Shown here: positions 22,256-31,518 of the stretch, piece after piece | Position numbering within the stretch: position 1 is the first letter of the stretch | How the letters are laid out: each line of letters begins with the position of its first letter | Assembly: GCA_021324885.1 (NCBI GenBank) | Contig: JAJPIF010000028.1 | Location: 248,001-312,000, forward strand | DNA length: 64,000 nucleotides | DNA from: Pseudomonadota bacterium | Lineage (GTDB): Bacteria > Desulfobacterota > Binatia > Binatales > Binataceae | Direction: 5' to 3' | The notes under the pieces: generated by a model | Told to the model about the DNA's origin: nothing | Database searches by the model: none | Seen by the model: only the letters and a program-made list of their open reading frames with translations | Program-made: the position numbers and the translations under genes

Positions 22256-23602
22256 ATGAAACGCGTGGGGACGTTTTTCAGTGCCGCGTTTTTGTTGGTA
22301 TCGATTTCCTGCCTTTGCCAGCCTCAGCTTTGGGCAGATAGCTACAGCTTCGATCCCAACAATTACAGGCAAATGGCCGATGCCGGGTCGCCGGCCACAA
22401 TCCCGCCGGGCACGAAAATCACGCTGAAGAACTGGCAGCAGTACAAACAATTCATGCCCGTCGCCCTTCAGGCGGCGTTCAGCGGCAAATACAGTTTCCA
22501 TGTCACTGACGATCCGATGTACACCATAGAGGTGCAGCCCACTACTCAAGTGGGAGCGCCCCGTCAATACCTGGCCGACGGCGAAAAGTATGGAAGCCAG
22601 GTCAGACTGGTGCCTTCAAGGACCGGCGGTTACACGATTGAGGGCTGGGTGGCAGGTCCGCCCTTTCCGTCGCCGGCCAATCCCAATATCGGCGAGAAAA
22701 TCCTGTATGACTCGTGGGCTCCGTGGCGACCCTACCTGTACCATTACATGACCTACGGCGTGAATATCGTCGATCGGTTTGGCAACCGCTCCGAAGGCAG
22801 TACCGACGCCACTTTCATGAATCTTTCTCATCTGAGCGAGCCTGACATGCCCAAGGATCTGCCCTACGCCAACGGCATGTTTTACGTCTCGCGATTCGAG
22901 GTGCTGATACCTGAGCAATCGAAGTACACCACCGAACTGCAGGCGCAGCCAACCGATCCGATGAGATATCCGGAAACCTACGTGTTCCTGCCCTCGCTGC
23001 GGCGGTCGCTGCGCTTGTCAAGCGCCGCCAAGTGCGCGCCGATCAACGGGACCGACTGGGTGCAGGACGACAATGCATGGAACCCGCCGATGTTCACCGT
23101 CACTTACCTTGGCGAAAAGAAGCTGCTGATGAACCTGCAGAAATGGGGGATCGGCAGCGAAGCCACATCATACGTCGGCACCACGTATGATCAGCCGGCG
23201 GGGGCGTTTCCCGGATGGCCTCGGCCGGGGACCGGTCACTGGGAGTTGCGCGACACTTACGTAATCGACGCGAAATGGATCCCTACCCTGGGCAGCTACT
23301 GCTTCTCTCATCGGATTTTCTATCTGGACCGCCTGGCCTATTTCGTGATGACGACCGAGGAGTACGACAACGAAGGCAAGCTGTGGAAATCGGCCTGGCT
23401 GCGGGTTTCTCCGATGGACGTGCACGGCCAACCCGTACTTTTTATCTACGGCACGCCTGAAACCCAGATGCTCGACTGGCAGAACGGCCACATGACCATC
23501 GGGCTGACGCACGAAATGAAGCTTTACAAAGAGGTGCCACCGCAGTACCAGGACGTCCAGACCTTGTCGACGCCGGGCAGTCTCGATCGCATCATGCAGT
23601 GA
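22256..23602 (+). CDS. DUF1329-domain secreted protein (copy 2)
   Basis: A 448-aa protein with a signal peptide (MKRVGTFFSAAFLLVS..) and strong ribosome-binding site aaaggaga 7 bases before ATG. Nearly every landmark of copy 1 is present: LKNWQQYKQFMPVA, TIEGWVAGPPFP, VDRFGNRS, YANGMFYVSRFE, FLPSLRRSLRLSSAAKC, VQDDNAWNPP, and the C-terminal TPGSLDRIMQ. The two copies are on opposite strands around an LLM gene, an arrangement compatible with a local inverted duplication. Presumed periplasmic or outer-membrane lipid-binding role. Confidence 0.88.
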   Translation: MKRVGTFFSAAFLLVSISCLCQPQLWADSYSFDPNNYRQMADAGSPATIPPGTKITLKNWQQYKQFMPVALQAAFSGKYSFHVTDDPMYTIEVQPTTQVGAPRQYLADGEKYGSQVRLVPSRTGGYTIEGWVAGPPFPSPANPNIGEKILYDSWAPWRPYLYHYMTYGVNIVDRFGNRSEGSTDATFMNLSHLSEPDMPKDLPYANGMFYVSRFEVLIPEQSKYTTELQAQPTDPMRYPETYVFLPSLRRSLRLSSAAKCAPINGTDWVQDDNAWNPPMFTVTYLGEKKLLMNLQKWGIGSEATSYVGTTYDQPAGAFPGWPRPGTGHWELRDTYVIDAKWIPTLGSYCFSHRIFYLDRLAYFVMTTEEYDNEGKLWKSAWLRVSPMDVHGQPVLFIYGTPETQMLDWQNGHMTIGLTHEMKLYKEVPPQYQDVQTLSTPGSLDRIMQ

Positions 23603-23935: not shown

Positions 23936-24253
23936 ATGGAAGCACTGGCCAGTAAGGTGGGTCGCCGCGGCGCGGTGGTGCTGCCCGCAAAACTTCGCCG
24001 ACGCCTCGGCATCGAAGAAGGATCCTTTGTGGTCGCCGAGGCTCGCGAGGATGGCATTCTGATTCGTCCGGCGACGGTGCTGCCGGTCGAGGTTTACACG
24101 CCGGAGCGCCGGGCCGAGTTCCTGCTGAATAATGCGGTGGATATCGAGGACTATCAGCGCGCCCGCGCAGAGGTGAAGCGGATCGGGGTCGATCCCGATC
24201 GTATCAAACACCACCGACCCGGACCAGCCAAGGCGGGGAAAGCGGGCCGATGA
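23936..24253 (+). CDS. AbrB/MazE/SpoVT-family antitoxin
   Basis: The 105-aa protein has the swapped-hairpin AbrB domain at its N-terminus (KVGRRGAVVLPAKLRRRLG, then EEGSFVVAEAREDGILIRPA) and a C-terminal toxin-contacting tail (YTPERRAEFLLNNAVD, DYQRARAEVKRIG). This antitoxin type normally precedes a PIN toxin gene directly, neutralises it and represses the operon. Here the PIN gene is 1.1 kb further on, beyond an unrelated 309-codon gene. Confidence 0.85.
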   Translation: MEALASKVGRRGAVVLPAKLRRRLGIEEGSFVVAEAREDGILIRPATVLPVEVYTPERRAEFLLNNAVDIEDYQRARAEVKRIGVDPDRIKHHRPGPAKAGKAGR

Positions 24254-25364: not shown

Positions 25365-25772
25365 ATGGACCGGATCTTTCTCGACGCCAACGTCCTGTTT
25401 TCGGCTGCATACCTGGAGAATTCCGGGCTGGGCCGGCTCTGGCAGCTCCAAGATGCCGAGCTGCTGAGCTCGGCCTATGCGGTTGAGGAAGCGCGTCGGA
25501 ACTTGGCTTTGTCTCGACAGCCGACGCTGGCCCGGCTCGAACGGCTGACGCCCAAGTTGGCGCTCGTCAATCCGCCGGGAAACCTGAAGCTGCCCGCACG
25601 TGTCCGGCTGGACTCAAAAGACCGGCCGATCCTGCTGGCCGCGATTCACGGCAAGGCGGATTTCCTGCTGACCGGCGACGGCCGCCACTTCGGCCATCTC
25701 TACGGCAAGCGCGTCGAAGGCGTGATGGTGCTGCGGCCGGCGCAGTATTTCGAGCGCCGCGCGCGACGATGA
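25365..25772 (+). CDS. PIN-domain toxin (VapC-like endoribonuclease)
   Basis: A 135-aa PIN domain. The acidic metal-binding residues are visible: Asp7 in FLDANVLFSAAY, Glu in AYAVEEARRNL (near 44), and Asp in FLLTGDGRHF (near 107), with LLAAIHGKADF before the last one. Such proteins cleave RNA when free of their antitoxin. The partner AbrB-type antitoxin is at 23936, separated by a 309-codon gene, so co-transcription across the insert is needed for normal regulation. A possible terminator follows at 25846. Confidence 0.83.
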   Translation: MDRIFLDANVLFSAAYLENSGLGRLWQLQDAELLSSAYAVEEARRNLALSRQPTLARLERLTPKLALVNPPGNLKLPARVRLDSKDRPILLAAIHGKADFLLTGDGRHFGHLYGKRVEGVMVLRPAQYFERRARR

Positions 25773-26965: not shown

Positions 26966-27424
26966 TCAGGTGAAGGTGGTTTCGACTGCGGCTGACTCGT
27001 CGATAAAAGCCTGAAAGGAAAATAACTGGCGGTAAAATATATCCACGCGTGTCTGGTCCTCGCCGTGCACTTTCAGCGGATGGCCCAACAGGCACAGCCT
27101 GTTAAGGGTGTGGTCGGCGTCGGCCTCGCCATGGGCCTTGATGTTGCGGACCATCTCTTTCCACGCCGCGTAGTCGCCTTCGAGGATCCAATCGGGATCG
27201 AATGACGCGAGCGCGCCCTGATCCAGCTCGCGCACCTCCACGCATTCGAAGCCGTCGAAAACCAGGCCGAAGGCACGATCGCCGCGGGGAGTGCCGTTGA
27301 TTTTGAAAATTGCGCGGGCGGTGACAAAGCCGAAATTCTGGTACTTTGCGCGCTGATCGTTCATCCGCGCCGCCAACTGCTCAAACCACTGAGCGGAGGG
27401 AAACTCTACTGCCGGATTTGCCAT
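26966..27424 (-). CDS. SCP2-like sterol-carrier-domain protein
   Basis: The 152-aa product resembles a single SCP2 lipid-binding domain: an N-terminal helix (FEQLAARMNDQR), beta strands around AFGLVFDGFECVEV, then ILEGDYAAWKEMV and the C-terminal HTLNRLCLLGHPLKV. SCP2-like domains bind hydrophobic ligands in a tunnel. The start at 27424 is 19 bases from the stop of the upstream ferritin-like paralogue, so it is the third gene of an operon (29864 to 26966). A TTG at 27436 is an alternative start. A role as a ligand carrier for the diiron proteins is inference. Confidence 0.6.
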   Translation of the reverse strand: MANPAVEFPSAQWFEQLAARMNDQRAKYQNFGFVTARAIFKINGTPRGDRAFGLVFDGFECVEVRELDQGALASFDPDWILEGDYAAWKEMVRNIKAHGEADADHTLNRLCLLGHPLKVHGEDQTRVDIFYRQLFSFQAFIDESAAVETTFT

Positions 27425-27442: not shown

Positions 27443-28669
27443 TCAGAACGGCGCCTCGGCTGGAATCAGACAACGATCGCGCCGAGCCAGGCCGATCGCG
27501 TCAAGCCGCGCCAGGTAATTATCACTGAACTGTGGCCAGAATTCGCGCAGGACACGCATTCCCTGTGACGCCGCGCTGCCGCCCAACAGGATTGCCAGTG
27601 GTTCCAACACCTTGGGGCTGAGCAGATGATGCTCGGTCTGGAGCGGTTCCAGGCGGTCAGCCACCAGATGGAGCTTGACGGCGGCTTCTTCTCGGTCGGG
27701 GCAGTTGCGCAGATAGAAACTGATCCGGCGGCATCCGAAGGCCACGTGCCGGGCGCAGTCCTGAACCAGTTGAGTCATCAGATGGCGATCGAAACGGCTG
27801 CGCGCGCCGGCGCTGCCCAGCCGCGCCATCTCGAGTAACAGCCCGTTGAACAGCACATCGATCGCGAACACAACCGAGCTGAACTCGCGCTCAACCTCGC
27901 CGACAAATCCGCGCGAGGCTTCGTTGCACACCTCGATCAGCCCCGCATCCAGACCGTCGATCTGCACCCCCATCCCGCCGCCGTTGGCCATCACGCGTTT
28001 GCGCAGCAATCCGCACATCAGGTTGTAGTCGAACAATTCGTAGGCCAGAAAGCTTTTGATTTCCGCAAAGCCGTAATGAATCAGCCCGTTCCACGGACCG
28101 CTCGCATCCGAGCACAGATACAGCGCCTGGATCAGGTAGGTCGCGAACTGATCGAAAGCGCGTTCGAGGTCGTCGGGAAGCGGCGTCATGTCTTCCCAAT
28201 GTAACTGGCGCGCCGGGCGGATCTGGCGATCCAACGCTTCCTCGGCCAGCTCGGCGGCATGATCGATCCAGACCTGGTCGCGCCGGTCCATCTCGCGCGC
28301 GGTCCCGTACTTGGGCGCGATTTTCTCCTCCATCTCGGGATCGATCGCGTGATGGGTCTTGATGTAGCGCGAATGCATCAGGCGGCGCGCCGGCTCATTG
28401 GTCGGCTCCGGATTGGCGCTGACGCGATTGATCGCCATGAAAGTCATGCCAATGCGATCGGGACGGGCGCGCTTGCCCCATTCCGTCCATTCGCCGCCCA
28501 CCAGCGGCGTGGTGAACCATTCACCAAGCTGGCCCGAGCGGATGCGCTGCGCTTCGCTGTGCTCGTAGAGTTTGGCTTTGACTTCCTCGGGCGGCGGCAG
28601 CGGCAAGGGCCGATGCCGCCGCGTGGGTGGAAGCGCAAGAGGTGAGGGGACGTGTTTGGGCGATGCCAA
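27443..28669 (-). CDS. Ferritin-like paralogue lacking diiron ligands (putative pseudoenzyme)
   Basis: A 408-aa homologue of the neighbouring 390-aa diiron protein, sharing the fold landmarks (VMANGGGMGV, QDCARHVAFG, VLREFWPQF) and the C-terminal signature RRDRCLIPAEAPF. By-eye alignment shows that five of six metal ligands are replaced: the four-helix Glu residues become Leu183, Tyr215, Asn275 and Cys305 and one His becomes Met218; only His308 remains. It has an extra Pro-rich N-terminus. The frame is intact, so it is not simply decaying. It starts with TTG, ggaga upstream, 22 bases after the active paralogue. It may be a structural or regulatory partner in a heteromer. Confidence 0.75.
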   Translation of the reverse strand: MASPKHVPSPLALPPTRRHRPLPLPPPEEVKAKLYEHSEAQRIRSGQLGEWFTTPLVGGEWTEWGKRARPDRIGMTFMAINRVSANPEPTNEPARRLMHSRYIKTHHAIDPEMEEKIAPKYGTAREMDRRDQVWIDHAAELAEEALDRQIRPARQLHWEDMTPLPDDLERAFDQFATYLIQALYLCSDASGPWNGLIHYGFAEIKSFLAYELFDYNLMCGLLRKRVMANGGGMGVQIDGLDAGLIEVCNEASRGFVGEVEREFSSVVFAIDVLFNGLLLEMARLGSAGARSRFDRHLMTQLVQDCARHVAFGCRRISFYLRNCPDREEAAVKLHLVADRLEPLQTEHHLLSPKVLEPLAILLGGSAASQGMRVLREFWPQFSDNYLARLDAIGLARRDRCLIPAEAPF

Positions 28670-28691
28670 TGACTTATTCTCCAGCCGAGCC

Positions 28692-29864
28692 TCAGAAGGG
28701 TGCTTCTTCGGGCAGCATGCAGCGGCCGCGGCGCGGGATTCCCGCCCGCTCGCAGCGGTTGATGTATTCCTCCACCGCGGTAGCCCAGAACTCGCGCACT
28801 ACGTCCCAGCCTTTGTGCAGGTTGCCCAACGATCCGGCCGCCAGCAGCGCAAACGGTTCGATCGCGCTGGGCTGCAGCAGCAGGCCGAAGCCGGTTCCGC
28901 TTGCCTCGCAGGCCGAGGCCAGGAAATGCAGCATTTCCGAAGCCGCTTCGCGTTCGGCGGGCGGCGCATTGTCGAGATAGTACTTAATCCGCATGGTGCC
29001 GAAGGAAACGTGACGCGCCTCGTCCTGCATGATCCGGCGGAACATCTCCTTGTCGCACGGATTGCGGCCAAGGAATTCGCCGAAACGGAAGAAATCCAGC
29101 ACCACCGCTTCGCCGATCATCTGGACGAAATAGGAGTAGGCGAGAAAGTCCCAGGTGGGGTTGACTGTCGCGACCGTGCGCGCGATCTCCTGGGGTAGAA
29201 CCGACTTACGCGGGTCGAACTGCAACAACGCTTCGGCTCCCGGCTCCATCCCGGGTCCGCCGCCGTTGGCGTACATGCGCTTGCCGAAGACCTCCATGTG
29301 GCGCGCTTCGTCCGCGCATTGCGAGGACATGAACAGCCGCACTTCGGGAAACGACGGGTCCACCCGCGCCATGTAGTAGGGCAGAGTATCGCCGGGCACG
29401 AACTCCACGGTATGCAGGAAACTCACGAACTGGCACAGCGCCCGCTCCTGATCTTCGGGCATCGGCTCGAGCTTGTCCCACGGAATGTCGCGGGTGGCGC
29501 TCCATTGGCGCGAGACCGCCTCTTCGTAAAGGCTTTCGACGTTGTATGACCAGACCTGGAACTTCTGGTTGAGCGGATAGTCGTAGCGCGGTGAATCGGG
29601 TTCCACTCCCGCCTCGCGATCGGGCAACAGCCCCAGCCCGGCGGCGGGCACCGGATGGCGGTCGGCGCGATTAAGTTCGACGAAGCTGACGCCGCGCCGG
29701 TTAGGCTGAAATCGATGGCCCCAGGATCCCCAGATGCCACCTTCCTCGACCGGCTTACTGGTGAACCAGGCGCCGGGTTCATAATTGCCCTCGCGCCAGC
29801 GCCGCACCTGCGGAAGTTGGCGGATTCGTTCGACGACCTCGGCTTTATCGGTGGGTATGGCCAC
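28692..29864 (-). CDS. Ferritin-like diiron-carboxylate protein
   Basis: The 390-aa product has a ribonucleotide-reductase-R2-like four-helix bundle with all six expected ligands: Glu154 (HTVEFVPGD), Glu186/His189 (DEARHMEVF), Glu252 (GEAVVLDFF) and Glu282/His285 (DEARHVSFG). This set fits an oxygen-activating diiron oxidase. The C-terminus RRGRCMLPEEAPF recurs in the downstream paralogue. Start is GTG with an excellent aggaggga. It heads a three-gene operon with the dead paralogue and an SCP2-like protein and is divergent from a CMD-family gene. The substrate is unknown; a hydrophobic or aromatic compound is plausible given the neighbours. Confidence 0.82.
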   Translation of the reverse strand: MAIPTDKAEVVERIRQLPQVRRWREGNYEPGAWFTSKPVEEGGIWGSWGHRFQPNRRGVSFVELNRADRHPVPAAGLGLLPDREAGVEPDSPRYDYPLNQKFQVWSYNVESLYEEAVSRQWSATRDIPWDKLEPMPEDQERALCQFVSFLHTVEFVPGDTLPYYMARVDPSFPEVRLFMSSQCADEARHMEVFGKRMYANGGGPGMEPGAEALLQFDPRKSVLPQEIARTVATVNPTWDFLAYSYFVQMIGEAVVLDFFRFGEFLGRNPCDKEMFRRIMQDEARHVSFGTMRIKYYLDNAPPAEREAASEMLHFLASACEASGTGFGLLLQPSAIEPFALLAAGSLGNLHKGWDVVREFWATAVEEYINRCERAGIPRRGRCMLPEEAPF

Positions 29865-30102: not shown

Positions 30103-30468
30103 ATGGCGGACATCGAAAAAGGCATCAAGAAACTGGGCGAACTGGTGGGCGAGCAGAGCGCCAGAGGCGCTTACGACTACATGAAGAAGTTCGACGAGGG
30201 ATTCGCAAATCTGGTGTTCGGCACGACTTTTGGTGATGTCTGGGCGCGTCCCGGCCTGCCGACCAAGTTGCGCTCGCTGGCGACGGTCGCCGGACTGGTC
30301 GTATTGGGACGCGGCCCCGAACTGAAAGCCCATATCCAGGGCGCGCTGCACGTGGGATGGACGCCGGAGGAAATCAAGGAGGTGATCATCCACATGTCGC
30401 AGTATGGCGGGATACCCACCACGATCGAAGCAATTCGAATTTTCGAAGAGGTGACGAAAAAGAAGTAG
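30103..30468 (+). CDS. Carboxymuconolactone decarboxylase-family protein
   Basis: A 121-aa protein with the CMD fold pattern: LPTKLRSLATVAGLVVLGRGPELKAHIQG in pieces, then ALHVGWTPEEIKEVIIHMSQYGGIPTTIEA. It has no CxxC, so it belongs to the PcaC-like group rather than AhpD peroxidase-type. aaaggag stands 8 bases upstream of ATG. PcaC removes CO2 from gamma-carboxymuconolactone, but many stand-alone members have unknown substrates; here it is next to diiron, SDR and epoxide hydrolase genes. Confidence 0.85.
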   Translation: MADIEKGIKKLGELVGEQSARGAYDYMKKFDEGFANLVFGTTFGDVWARPGLPTKLRSLATVAGLVVLGRGPELKAHIQGALHVGWTPEEIKEVIIHMSQYGGIPTTIEAIRIFEEVTKKK

Positions 30469-30561: not shown

Positions 30562-31335
30562 TCACTGACGATGGCGCCGGGGGGCGCGCGGCGGTTCCAC
30601 AACTCGTGGGCCTGACGGACGCACCTCGACGATTTGGCCGATACAGTTGTCGTCGCGCACAAAATTCAGCACCACTTGCGCGATCTGCTCCGGCTTAAGC
30701 GCGTTGGCAGGCATCGCCGTCCTGCCGCCCGCTTCGGCAACTTCCCTGGTCAGCTTTTCCACCAGCGGCGTCATTACGATTCCGGGACAGACGCAGTTTA
30801 CCCGCACCCCCCGCCGGGCCCATCGATTGAGCGAGAAGGTCAGATGCACCACGCCGCCCTTGGCTGCGGCATAGACCGGATCGCTCGGATGCGGATAGAT
30901 GCCCGCCATCGAAGCCGTGTTGACGATCACGCCGCCGCCGCGCGGTGCCATGAACTCGTAGCCGAGCTGGCATCCGAGCAGCACCGCCTGAAGATCGACG
31001 TCGAGCACGCGGCGCCATTTCTCCAGCGGTGTCTTGGGATAAATCGGATGCGCGATCGCGATCCCGGCGTTGTTGTGCAGAATGTCGAGACGACCGAACT
31101 CCGCGATGGTGTCCTCCATAACCTGGCGCATCTGCTCGGCGCTGGTGACATCGGCCTTGCGAAACGCCGCCTGGCCGCCGGCCTTGCGGATTAGCTCGAC
31201 ACTTTCATTACCCATCTTTTCGTCGAGATCGACAATCATGACGGCAGCGCCTTCAGCCGCCAGGCTCTGCGCCGTGGTGCGACCGATGCCCGAGCCGCCG
31301 CCGGTGATCACTGCCGCTTTTCCCGCAATTTCCAT
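30562..31335 (-). CDS. SDR-family oxidoreductase
   Basis: A 257-aa classical SDR. TGGGSGIG (near residues 11-18), VDLDEK after beta-2 (acidic, NAD-type), HNNAGIA, and catalytic YAAAKGG are present. The start at 31335 has gggagga 7 bases upstream; the frame extends further but without that signal. It is divergent from the epoxide hydrolase gene across a 183-base region, so the two may share a control region. Substrate unknown. Confidence 0.87.
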   Translation of the reverse strand: MEIAGKAAVITGGGSGIGRTTAQSLAAEGAAVMIVDLDEKMGNESVELIRKAGGQAAFRKADVTSAEQMRQVMEDTIAEFGRLDILHNNAGIAIAHPIYPKTPLEKWRRVLDVDLQAVLLGCQLGYEFMAPRGGGVIVNTASMAGIYPHPSDPVYAAAKGGVVHLTFSLNRWARRGVRVNCVCPGIVMTPLVEKLTREVAEAGGRTAMPANALKPEQIAQVVLNFVRDDNCIGQIVEVRPSGPRVVEPPRAPRRHRQ

Positions 31336-31518
31336 CGCAAGGTCCTCCCTGGTAAATGCCGGCGTGCTGAAACAGCTCGCCTCCGTCACCTGTCTTGCAT
31401 GGAAAATTAACGCGGCGGCCAAGTCAAACCGGCGGCTGAATTGTGTAGCGATGGATGGCGGCGCAAAGTCCTGCTAGATCAACCCCAGCGGCATGACGGC
31501 CGTCGTGGAGAGCCATCA

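What the first reader, a model, noticed from the sequence alone, without database searches (positions are those of the whole stretch)
27443..29864. Active diiron protein paired with a metal-ligand-less paralogue and an SCP2-like carrier
The two ferritin-like proteins are adjacent in one operon and share fold and the C-terminal RCxxPxEAPF signature. The first has six diiron ligands; in the second, five of six are replaced (Leu183, Tyr215, Met218, Asn275, Cys305) while the frame is intact. Such an enzyme/pseudoenzyme pair suggests an obligate heteromer, and the SCP2-like gene, 19 bases away, could deliver a hydrophobic substrate. I know no described system of this make-up.
Basis: partly seen in the sequence, partly recalled or inferred. 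Interest (0 to 1): 0.62.

Follow-up and report, generated by a model that had tools for sequence, protein, structure and literature searches.

The report
Diiron enzyme with metal-less twin subunit
Three neighbouring bacterial genes encode a probable iron-using oxygen enzyme, a look-alike of it that has lost the iron-binding residues but is kept by selection, and a lipid-carrier-like protein; related sets occur in several bacterial phyla, and the metal-less twin seems to have arisen at least three separate times.

Summary
P0001 (28692-29864, minus) has the six diiron ligands E154 E186 H189 E252 E282 H285. P0002 (27443-28669) has L183 Y215 M218 N275 C305 and keeps only H308. P0003 (26966-27424) has a predicted SCP2 fold. 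P0002 is not decaying (dN/dS 0.11-0.16). The orthologous trio was found in 4 of 148 class genomes, but the arrangement is wider: 67 non-redundant readable tandem pairs (window's class, Chloroflexota, Gammaproteobacteria, Myxococcota) all have an intact upstream copy and a downstream copy keeping 0-2 of six ligands; 51 of 67 have an SCP2-like gene nearby. Tree and AU tests reject one origin of the metal-less copies and support three. Two of the three clades share a Q-to-R change. Best explanation: an undescribed branch near the R2lox/AurF/VlmB dimetal oxidases, working as enzyme/pseudoenzyme heteromers on an SCP2-carried hydrophobic substrate. Heteromer, metal and substrate are inferred, not shown. 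Enzyme/pseudoenzyme diiron pairs are known (PaaA/PaaC, Rnr2/Rnr4), so this is a new variant of a known kind.

The parts
28692..29864 (-). P0001, 390 aa, intact diiron/dimetal ferritin-like protein (E154 E186 H189 E252 E282 H285), GTG start
   Evidence: (Pfam AurF 32.5 bits, cut-off 29.6)
27443..28669 (-). P0002, 408 aa from a TTG start (start not certain), paralogue with five of six ligands replaced (L183 Y215 M218 N275 C305; H308 kept); probable pseudoenzyme subunit
   Evidence: model pLDDT 84.9 matching VlmB, R2lox, R2 and aldehyde-deformylating oxygenase folds at Z about 22
26966..27424 (-). P0003, 152 aa, SCP2-like small protein, 18 bases downstream of P0002
   Evidence: model pLDDT 97.2; first 21 Foldseek rows are SCP2 proteins, best E 3.1e-6
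30103..30468 (+). divergent neighbour, carboxymuconolactone-decarboxylase (CMD) family; also beside the trio in the same-genus loci L090 and L104 (context, not shown to belong)
   Evidence: (cluster c17)
30562..31347 (-). short-chain dehydrogenase/reductase; its cluster is also beside the trio in L090 (context, not shown to belong)
   Evidence: (cluster c1)

Best explanation
P0001, P0002 and P0003 form a three-gene oxidase unit. P0001 is a dimetal-carboxylate (Fe/Fe or Mn/Fe) oxygen-activating enzyme on an R2lox/AurF/VlmB-like scaffold. P0002 arose by tandem duplication of P0001, lost the metal site and is kept as the non-catalytic partner of a P0001-P0002 heteromer, stabilising the metal centre and shaping substrate or electron access, as Rnr4 does for Rnr2 and PaaC for PaaA. 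P0003 is an SCP2-fold lipid carrier that presents a hydrophobic, perhaps CoA-linked, substrate. Shown by sequence: gene order, ligand status, selection, recurrence, separate origins. Inferred: metal binding, heteromer, substrate class, delivery.
For: Ligand columns. P0002 under purifying selection. Orthologues of P0001 and P0002 occur in the same 4 of 148 class genomes, in the same order with P0003 after them in the window, L090, L091 and L103; L104 stops at a contig end. An SCP2-like gene lies on the same strand within 1.5 kb of 51 of 67 pairs (37 of 38 in the class), and somewhere in the stretch in 62 of 80 stretches with one family copy. Ligand-less rows keep framework residues (D281, R284 and W129 each in 77 of 77 rows). 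The careful tree joins P0002 to P0001 (100/98), type II ligand-less to type II intact (100/99) and type III ligand-less to type III intact (100/100); none of 200 bootstrap trees has one origin. AU tests reject all ligand-less rows as one clade (p 8e-6) and types II+III as one (p 1e-5). Position 120 is Q in 154 of 155 intact rows (one gap) but R in 39 of 42 type II and 28 of 31 type III rows. Possible redox partners nearby: a cluster of Fer4 ferredoxin type in 8 loci and one of zinc-ribbon type in 6 (representatives scanned).
Against: No complex was modelled or measured; the tool predicts single chains. The 67 pairs reflect about three duplication events, so the fixed gene order is not strong evidence by itself. 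Many relatives occur as single intact copies, so a ligand-less partner is not needed for the enzyme type. Intact copies of pair types II and III share only two weak residue differences from single copies, so no common interface signature was seen. 16 of 67 pairs have no SCP2-like gene nearby; 15 of these are Chloroflexota by title and one (L186) lies on a 3.2 kb contig. Exceptions: L201 is a single copy with EEHKQH; in G428 the two copies lie on different contigs; L100 has two intact divergent copies. The first tree, on fewer columns, put P0002 on a long branch beside the type III ligand-less rows (SH-aLRT 90), so its sisterhood with P0001 rests on the full-length trees with orthologues. The shared Q120R could also be a trace of common origin that the trees miss.
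Confidence: 0.6

Rival explanations
1. P0002 is not metal-free but has a remodelled site: E211 and D271, each one turn before a lost ligand, with H308 and perhaps C305 and D304, bind a single metal or another cofactor.
For: In the four type I sequences Q182 is replaced by E and position 248 by D, in 4 of 4, visible in the orthologue alignment; H308 is kept in all four.
Against: No counterpart in the type II rows, where Q182 is kept in 95% and position 248 is N in 93%; type III rows are mixed (Q182 in 52%). Coordinates of the model could not be inspected.
Confidence: 0.15
2. P0002 works apart from P0001, for example as a stand-alone lipid- or acyl-binding protein on the old scaffold, and is merely co-transcribed.
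For: No physical evidence of a complex; an unlinked pair exists in G428 (L092, L093); R2lox proteins are reported to co-purify with fatty acids (PMC10867098, passages).
Against: Three separate duplications kept the ligand-less copy next to an intact one.
Confidence: 0.2
3. P0002 is a decaying duplicate with no function.
For: Longer branch and higher dN/dS than P0001.
Against: dN/dS 0.11-0.16 at dS 0.7-1.3, open frame in the four complete sequences, D304 and R307 kept.
Confidence: 0.03
4. The unit is simply an overlooked member of the known bacterial multicomponent monooxygenases (MMOH, PaaAC).
For: Same logic of catalytic and ligand-less ferritin-like subunits; MMOH chains appear among weaker Foldseek matches of P0002 (E 0.007 and 0.014).
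Against: None of the families listed for 71 family members at E <= 0.01 is of that kind; the 13 PDB sequences found by the profile of intact members at E <= 0.001 are a VlmB homologue and R2lox-type entries, not MMOH or PaaA.
Confidence: 0.02

Closest known systems
Phenylacetyl-CoA epoxidase PaaA/PaaC (PaaABCE)
   Same: Catalytic diiron ferritin-like subunit plus same-fold structural subunit forming a heterodimer (17% identity), genes in the paa operon, with further subunits PaaB and PaaE (PMC4498308, passages).
   Different: Different sequence family; a bridging subunit and a reductase rather than an SCP2-like protein; no such gene among the ten window neighbours scanned.
Yeast ribonucleotide reductase Rnr2/Rnr4
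   Same: A duplicate that lost iron ligands (three residues) and forms the heterodimer that stabilises the diiron centre of the active copy (PMC2704937 and PMC3824934, passages).
   Different: From a genome duplication, genes not in tandem; serves radical generation for a reductase; here five ligands lost and separate origins.
R2-like ligand-binding oxidase (R2lox)
   Same: EEHEEH ligands, profile and fold match; R2lox is reported to co-purify with fatty acids and, in one study, to degrade alkanes, although a double ligand mutant there lost little activity (PMC10867098, passages).
   Different: P0001 scores 35 bits against a cut-off of 194 for its best NCBIfam R2lox model; neither cross-link residue is present in intact rows: the Tyr column has 0 of 155 Tyr, the Val column is Ala in 151 and Pro in 4 of 155.
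AurF / VlmB N-oxygenases (VlmB azoxy synthase, PDB 8wvr; homologue 6d9f)
   Same: Best PDB profile hit (6d9f, E 2e-7), first fold rows (Z 22.8 and 22.6, tied with R2lox, R2 and aldehyde-deformylating oxygenase); P0001 passes the Pfam AurF cut-off.
   Different: AurF's additional histidine ligand (recalled) is absent: 0 of 155 intact rows have His at that column; nothing typical of natural-product synthesis among the ten window neighbours scanned.
SCP2 proteins, including UbiJ
   Same: P0003 has the SCP2 fold by prediction; the UbiJ SCP2 domain is proposed to hold the hydrophobic tail of intermediates in the Ubi metabolon, which contains hydroxylases (PMC9499169, abstract and passages).
   Different: No Pfam SCP2 match for P0003; a motif of its own with D128, R132 and Q138 invariant in 28 relatives, R132 and Q138 in 56.

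Membership tests
AurF (Pfam PF11583) | score at or above the Pfam gathering cut-off | tested here: met
   P0001 32.5 bits against 29.6; 17 of 71 family members match at E <= 0.01; P0002 does not match
AurF (Pfam PF11583) | seventh ligand, His four residues before the last Glu (recalled) | tested here: not met
   I278 in P0001; 0 of 155 EEHEEH rows have His there
R2lox | NCBIfam R2lox models at cut-off | tested here: not met
   P0001 35, 18.3 and 12.8 bits against 194, 286 and 346
R2lox | Val-Tyr cross-link residues, three after the first Glu and five before the third-helix Glu (numbering E69, V72, Y162, E167 from PMC10867098) | tested here: not met
   P157 and V247 in P0001; 0 of 155 rows Tyr, 0 of 155 Val (Ala 151, Pro 4) at these columns
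Ribonucleotide reductase R2 | Pfam PF00268 cut-off | tested here: not met
   18.1 bits against 33.6
Bacterial multicomponent monooxygenase / PaaAC | sequence match to those families | tested here: not met
   absent from the Pfam and NCBIfam lists for 71 members at E <= 0.01
Bacterial multicomponent monooxygenase / PaaAC | catalytic and ligand-less homologous subunits in one complex | not testable with these tools
   gene pair and ligand loss shown; complex not testable
SCP2 superfamily | SCP2 fold | tested here: met
   first 21 Foldseek rows are SCP2 proteins, TM 0.68/0.79 with 2cx7_A
SCP2 superfamily | Pfam PF02036 match | tested here: not met
   none for P0003 at E <= 1; 1 of 28 relatives at E 0.024
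SCP2 superfamily | lipid binding in the cavity | not testable with these tools
   needs ligand binding or a structure

The most novel reading that the evidence does not exclude
A large undescribed family of dimetal oxygenases, spread over several bacterial phyla, in which an enzyme/pseudoenzyme heteromer evolved at least three separate times from the same scaffold, two of them with the same Q-to-R substitution, each working with an SCP2-type carrier that hands over a lipid substrate.
Probability: 0.4. Interest if true: 0.78.

Novelty: new variant of a known kind. Interest (0 to 1): 0.6.

Why it matters
If the pairs are heteromers, this family is a natural replicate experiment on why diiron enzymes acquire metal-less partners: separate origins can be compared with single-copy relatives that do without one. 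It would also add an oxygenase class with its own lipid carrier in environmental bacteria whose oxidative catabolism is poorly known.

Tried and rejected
Membership in R2lox, AurF proper, RNR R2 and multicomponent monooxygenases was tested and not adopted. PHROGs gave nothing; Rfam gave nothing in the window at gathering score. Plasmid records gave one remote hit only, in a record over 11 Mb long. Neighbour clustering first failed through antisense shadow ORFs and was redone; its largest cluster outside the trio covers 13 loci, so no fourth gene is shared by all. A search for residues shared by intact copies of pair types II and III but unlike single copies gave only columns 125 (T against R) and 319 (A against G), both weakly conserved. 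The first tree on core columns disagreed about P0002 and included L080|1323, a remote, misaligned row labelled pseudo. That row was dropped from the full trees, but it and the single-copy L201 stay among the 77 ligand-less rows and the 31 type III rows; rows that repeat a contig also stay in those counts. Ten adjacent cases with truncated or split copies were set aside as unreadable. The 80 one-copy stretches include two lone ligand-less copies (L092, L195) and were not checked for redundancy. The analysis took 160 of the 205 stretches then held; those left out are short loci of the searches, mostly overlapping others. Literature: 'diiron, SCP2, ferritin-like, oxygenase' 0 papers; 'pseudoenzyme, diiron' 2 papers, by title unrelated; 'sterol carrier protein, ferritin-like, diiron, gene cluster' (3 of 4 terms) 29 papers, 12 listed, none of the 12 holding 'sterol carrier protein'; heterodimer/paralog search, 25 papers, 15 listed. 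The Binatota paper has no 'diiron', 'SCP2' or 'ferritin' in its main text. The library lacks most subscription papers. That the class is Binatia is only a guess: contigs of three class genomes equal in length records titled Deltaproteobacteria (L065/L141, L074/L156, L095/L171), and RDP calls Binatota unclassified Deltaproteobacteria.

Full report
What is there. On the minus strand, 29864 to 26966, three genes follow one another: P0001 (390 aa), a 22-base gap, P0002 (408 aa from a TTG start), an 18-base gap, and P0003 (152 aa). P0001 and P0002 are 34% identical and share the C-terminal RRxRCxxPxEAPF. The genome holds no other close member: apart from these two, the only matches of P0001 in its own 4.5 Mb assembly are two weak ones on another contig, E 0.003 and 0.8.

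Ligands. In a family alignment the six diiron positions of P0001 are E154, E186, H189, E252, E282, H285; the same columns in P0002 are L183, Y215, M218, N275, C305, H308. A full shifted set is not present. In the four type I sequences, though, Q182 has become Glu (E211) and position 248 has become Asp (D271), each one helical turn before a lost ligand; a remodelled single-metal site is therefore kept as a rival. P0002 is not a decaying copy: NG86 dN/dS is 0.107-0.155 across six genome pairs, against 0.067-0.075 for P0001 (one copy partial) and 0.10-0.18 for P0003.

Family. P0001 passes the Pfam AurF cut-off (32.5 against 29.6 bits) and falls far below the NCBIfam R2lox cut-offs. A profile of 14 intact members finds 13 PDB sequences at E <= 0.001: a VlmB homologue (E 2e-7) and R2lox-type entries, most of them named ribonucleotide reductase small subunit there and R2-like ligand-binding oxidase in the Foldseek table. 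The P0002 model (pLDDT 84.9, with stretches under 50 at residues 32-34, 71-82 and 92-96 of the model) matches VlmB, R2lox, R2 and aldehyde-deformylating oxygenase with Z about 22, all tied. The two cross-link residues of R2lox and the extra histidine of AurF are absent in 155 of 155 intact rows. So this is a branch of its own near these families.

P0003. Its model has pLDDT 97.2 and the first 21 Foldseek rows are SCP2 proteins, among them UbiJ. Pfam SCP2 does not hit it; D128, R132 and Q138 are invariant in 28 relatives. Lipid binding is inferred from the fold.

How common. P0001 orthologues (at least 82% identical) and P0002 orthologues (at least 81%) occur in the same 4 of 148 class genomes: three of the window's genus and one of another genus of its family. 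In a draw of 297 phylum genomes P0002 has relatives in 9, all in this class. But the arrangement is wider. In 160 stretches given to one analysis there were 70 readable same-strand tandem pairs; three records repeat a contig by its length, leaving 67: 3 window type, 35 other class, 29 named (by title 20 Chloroflexota, 7 Pseudomonadota, 2 Myxococcota). In every one the upstream copy is EEHEEH and the downstream copy keeps 0, 1 or 2 ligands (22, 25, 23 of 70). Ten further adjacent cases were truncated or split. The scan queries were built on intact members, which favours loci with an intact copy; a pair of two intact copies would still have been found, and one divergent pair was (L100).

Gene order differs: the window type, G313 (L085) and two Chloroflexi loci (L137, L153) have intact, ligand-less, SCP2-like; the common class type has SCP2-like, intact, ligand-less; seven Pseudomonadota loci and L140 have intact, ligand-less and two SCP2-like genes. 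An SCP2-like gene is near 51 of 67 pairs and present in 62 of 80 one-copy stretches. The intact protein plus SCP2-like protein is thus the core, and the ligand-less twin an addition.

Origins. A careful maximum-likelihood tree without the ligand columns (77 rows, 345 columns) joins P0002 with P0001 (100/98), type II ligand-less with type II intact (100/99; class and Myxococcota), and type III ligand-less with type III intact (100/100; Chloroflexota, Gammaproteobacteria, and G313 of the class). Three changes are forced and none of 200 bootstrap trees needs only one. AU tests reject all ligand-less rows as one clade (p 8e-6) and types II plus III as one (p 1e-5); the second grouping was chosen after seeing a tree, so its p value is optimistic. 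A first tree on 195 columns without orthologues placed P0002 with type III ligand-less rows on a long branch. Types II and III ligand-less rows share Q120 to R (39 of 42 and 28 of 31) where 154 of 155 intact rows have Q; the window type keeps Q. Given the tree this is parallel change, which hints at a common new role; it could also be a trace of common origin that the tree misses.

Mechanism. The likely reading is a heteromer in which only the intact subunit is catalytic. Precedents seen in passages of papers: yeast Rnr4 lacks iron ligands, forms the heterodimer with Rnr2 and stabilises its diiron centre (PMC2704937, PMC3824934); PaaC is a same-fold structural subunit of PaaA (PMC4498308). That ligand-less rows keep D281, R284 and W129 in 77 of 77 fits a kept scaffold. 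The SCP2-like protein suggests a hydrophobic substrate, as proposed for UbiJ (PMC9499169, abstract and passages), and R2lox proteins co-purify with fatty acids (PMC10867098, passages). Neighbour clusters, named from one or two scanned representatives each, include ferredoxin-type (8 loci), zinc-ribbon (6), CoA-transferase (7) and acyl-CoA dehydrogenase (9 loci) proteins, which fits redox-dependent lipid or CoA-thioester metabolism but is not specific. Around the window genes lie luciferase-like monooxygenases, a DUF1329 protein, a CMD-family protein, an SDR and an epoxide-hydrolase-like protein.

Limits. No complex, metal or substrate was tested. The many pairs come from about three duplications, so they are not independent evidence of gene order. 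No shared interface signature was found in paired intact copies. Exceptions are L201 (single copy, EEHKQH), G428 (copies on different contigs) and L100. Literature searches cover open-licence papers only.

Noticed in passing
L201:3438-4556 (G369): A relative with ligand set EEHKQH and no tandem partner in the 8.5 kb stretch: ligand loss without an adjacent intact copy.
   Followed up: partly
L113:7310-7753, L128:7656-8138, L143:6332-6868 and five more loci of cluster c6: A small Fer4 ferredoxin-type protein (two members scanned) recurs beside one-copy diiron plus SCP2-like loci, a possible electron donor; in six Pseudomonadota/Chloroflexota loci (cluster c9, one member scanned) a small zinc-ribbon protein lies close to the SCP2-like gene.
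   Followed up: partly
L147 and L155: Records titled Klebsiella pneumoniae (MAG MaH-04nov19-284) whose family members group with environmental Gammaproteobacteria/Chloroflexota sequences; the title looks wrong.
   Followed up: no
L103 and L104 (G332): Two partial copies of the trio at contig ends in one assembly, with different identity to the window genes: two copies or mixed strains.
   Followed up: no
window 25365-25772, with 23936-24253 upstream: A PIN_3-domain protein, and upstream an ORF that by eye looks like an AbrB/MazE-type protein (not scanned): a possible toxin-antitoxin remnant.
   Followed up: no
window 22256-23602: DUF1329 protein next to a luciferase-like monooxygenase, a setting that I recall from hydrophobic-compound degraders.
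   Followed up: no
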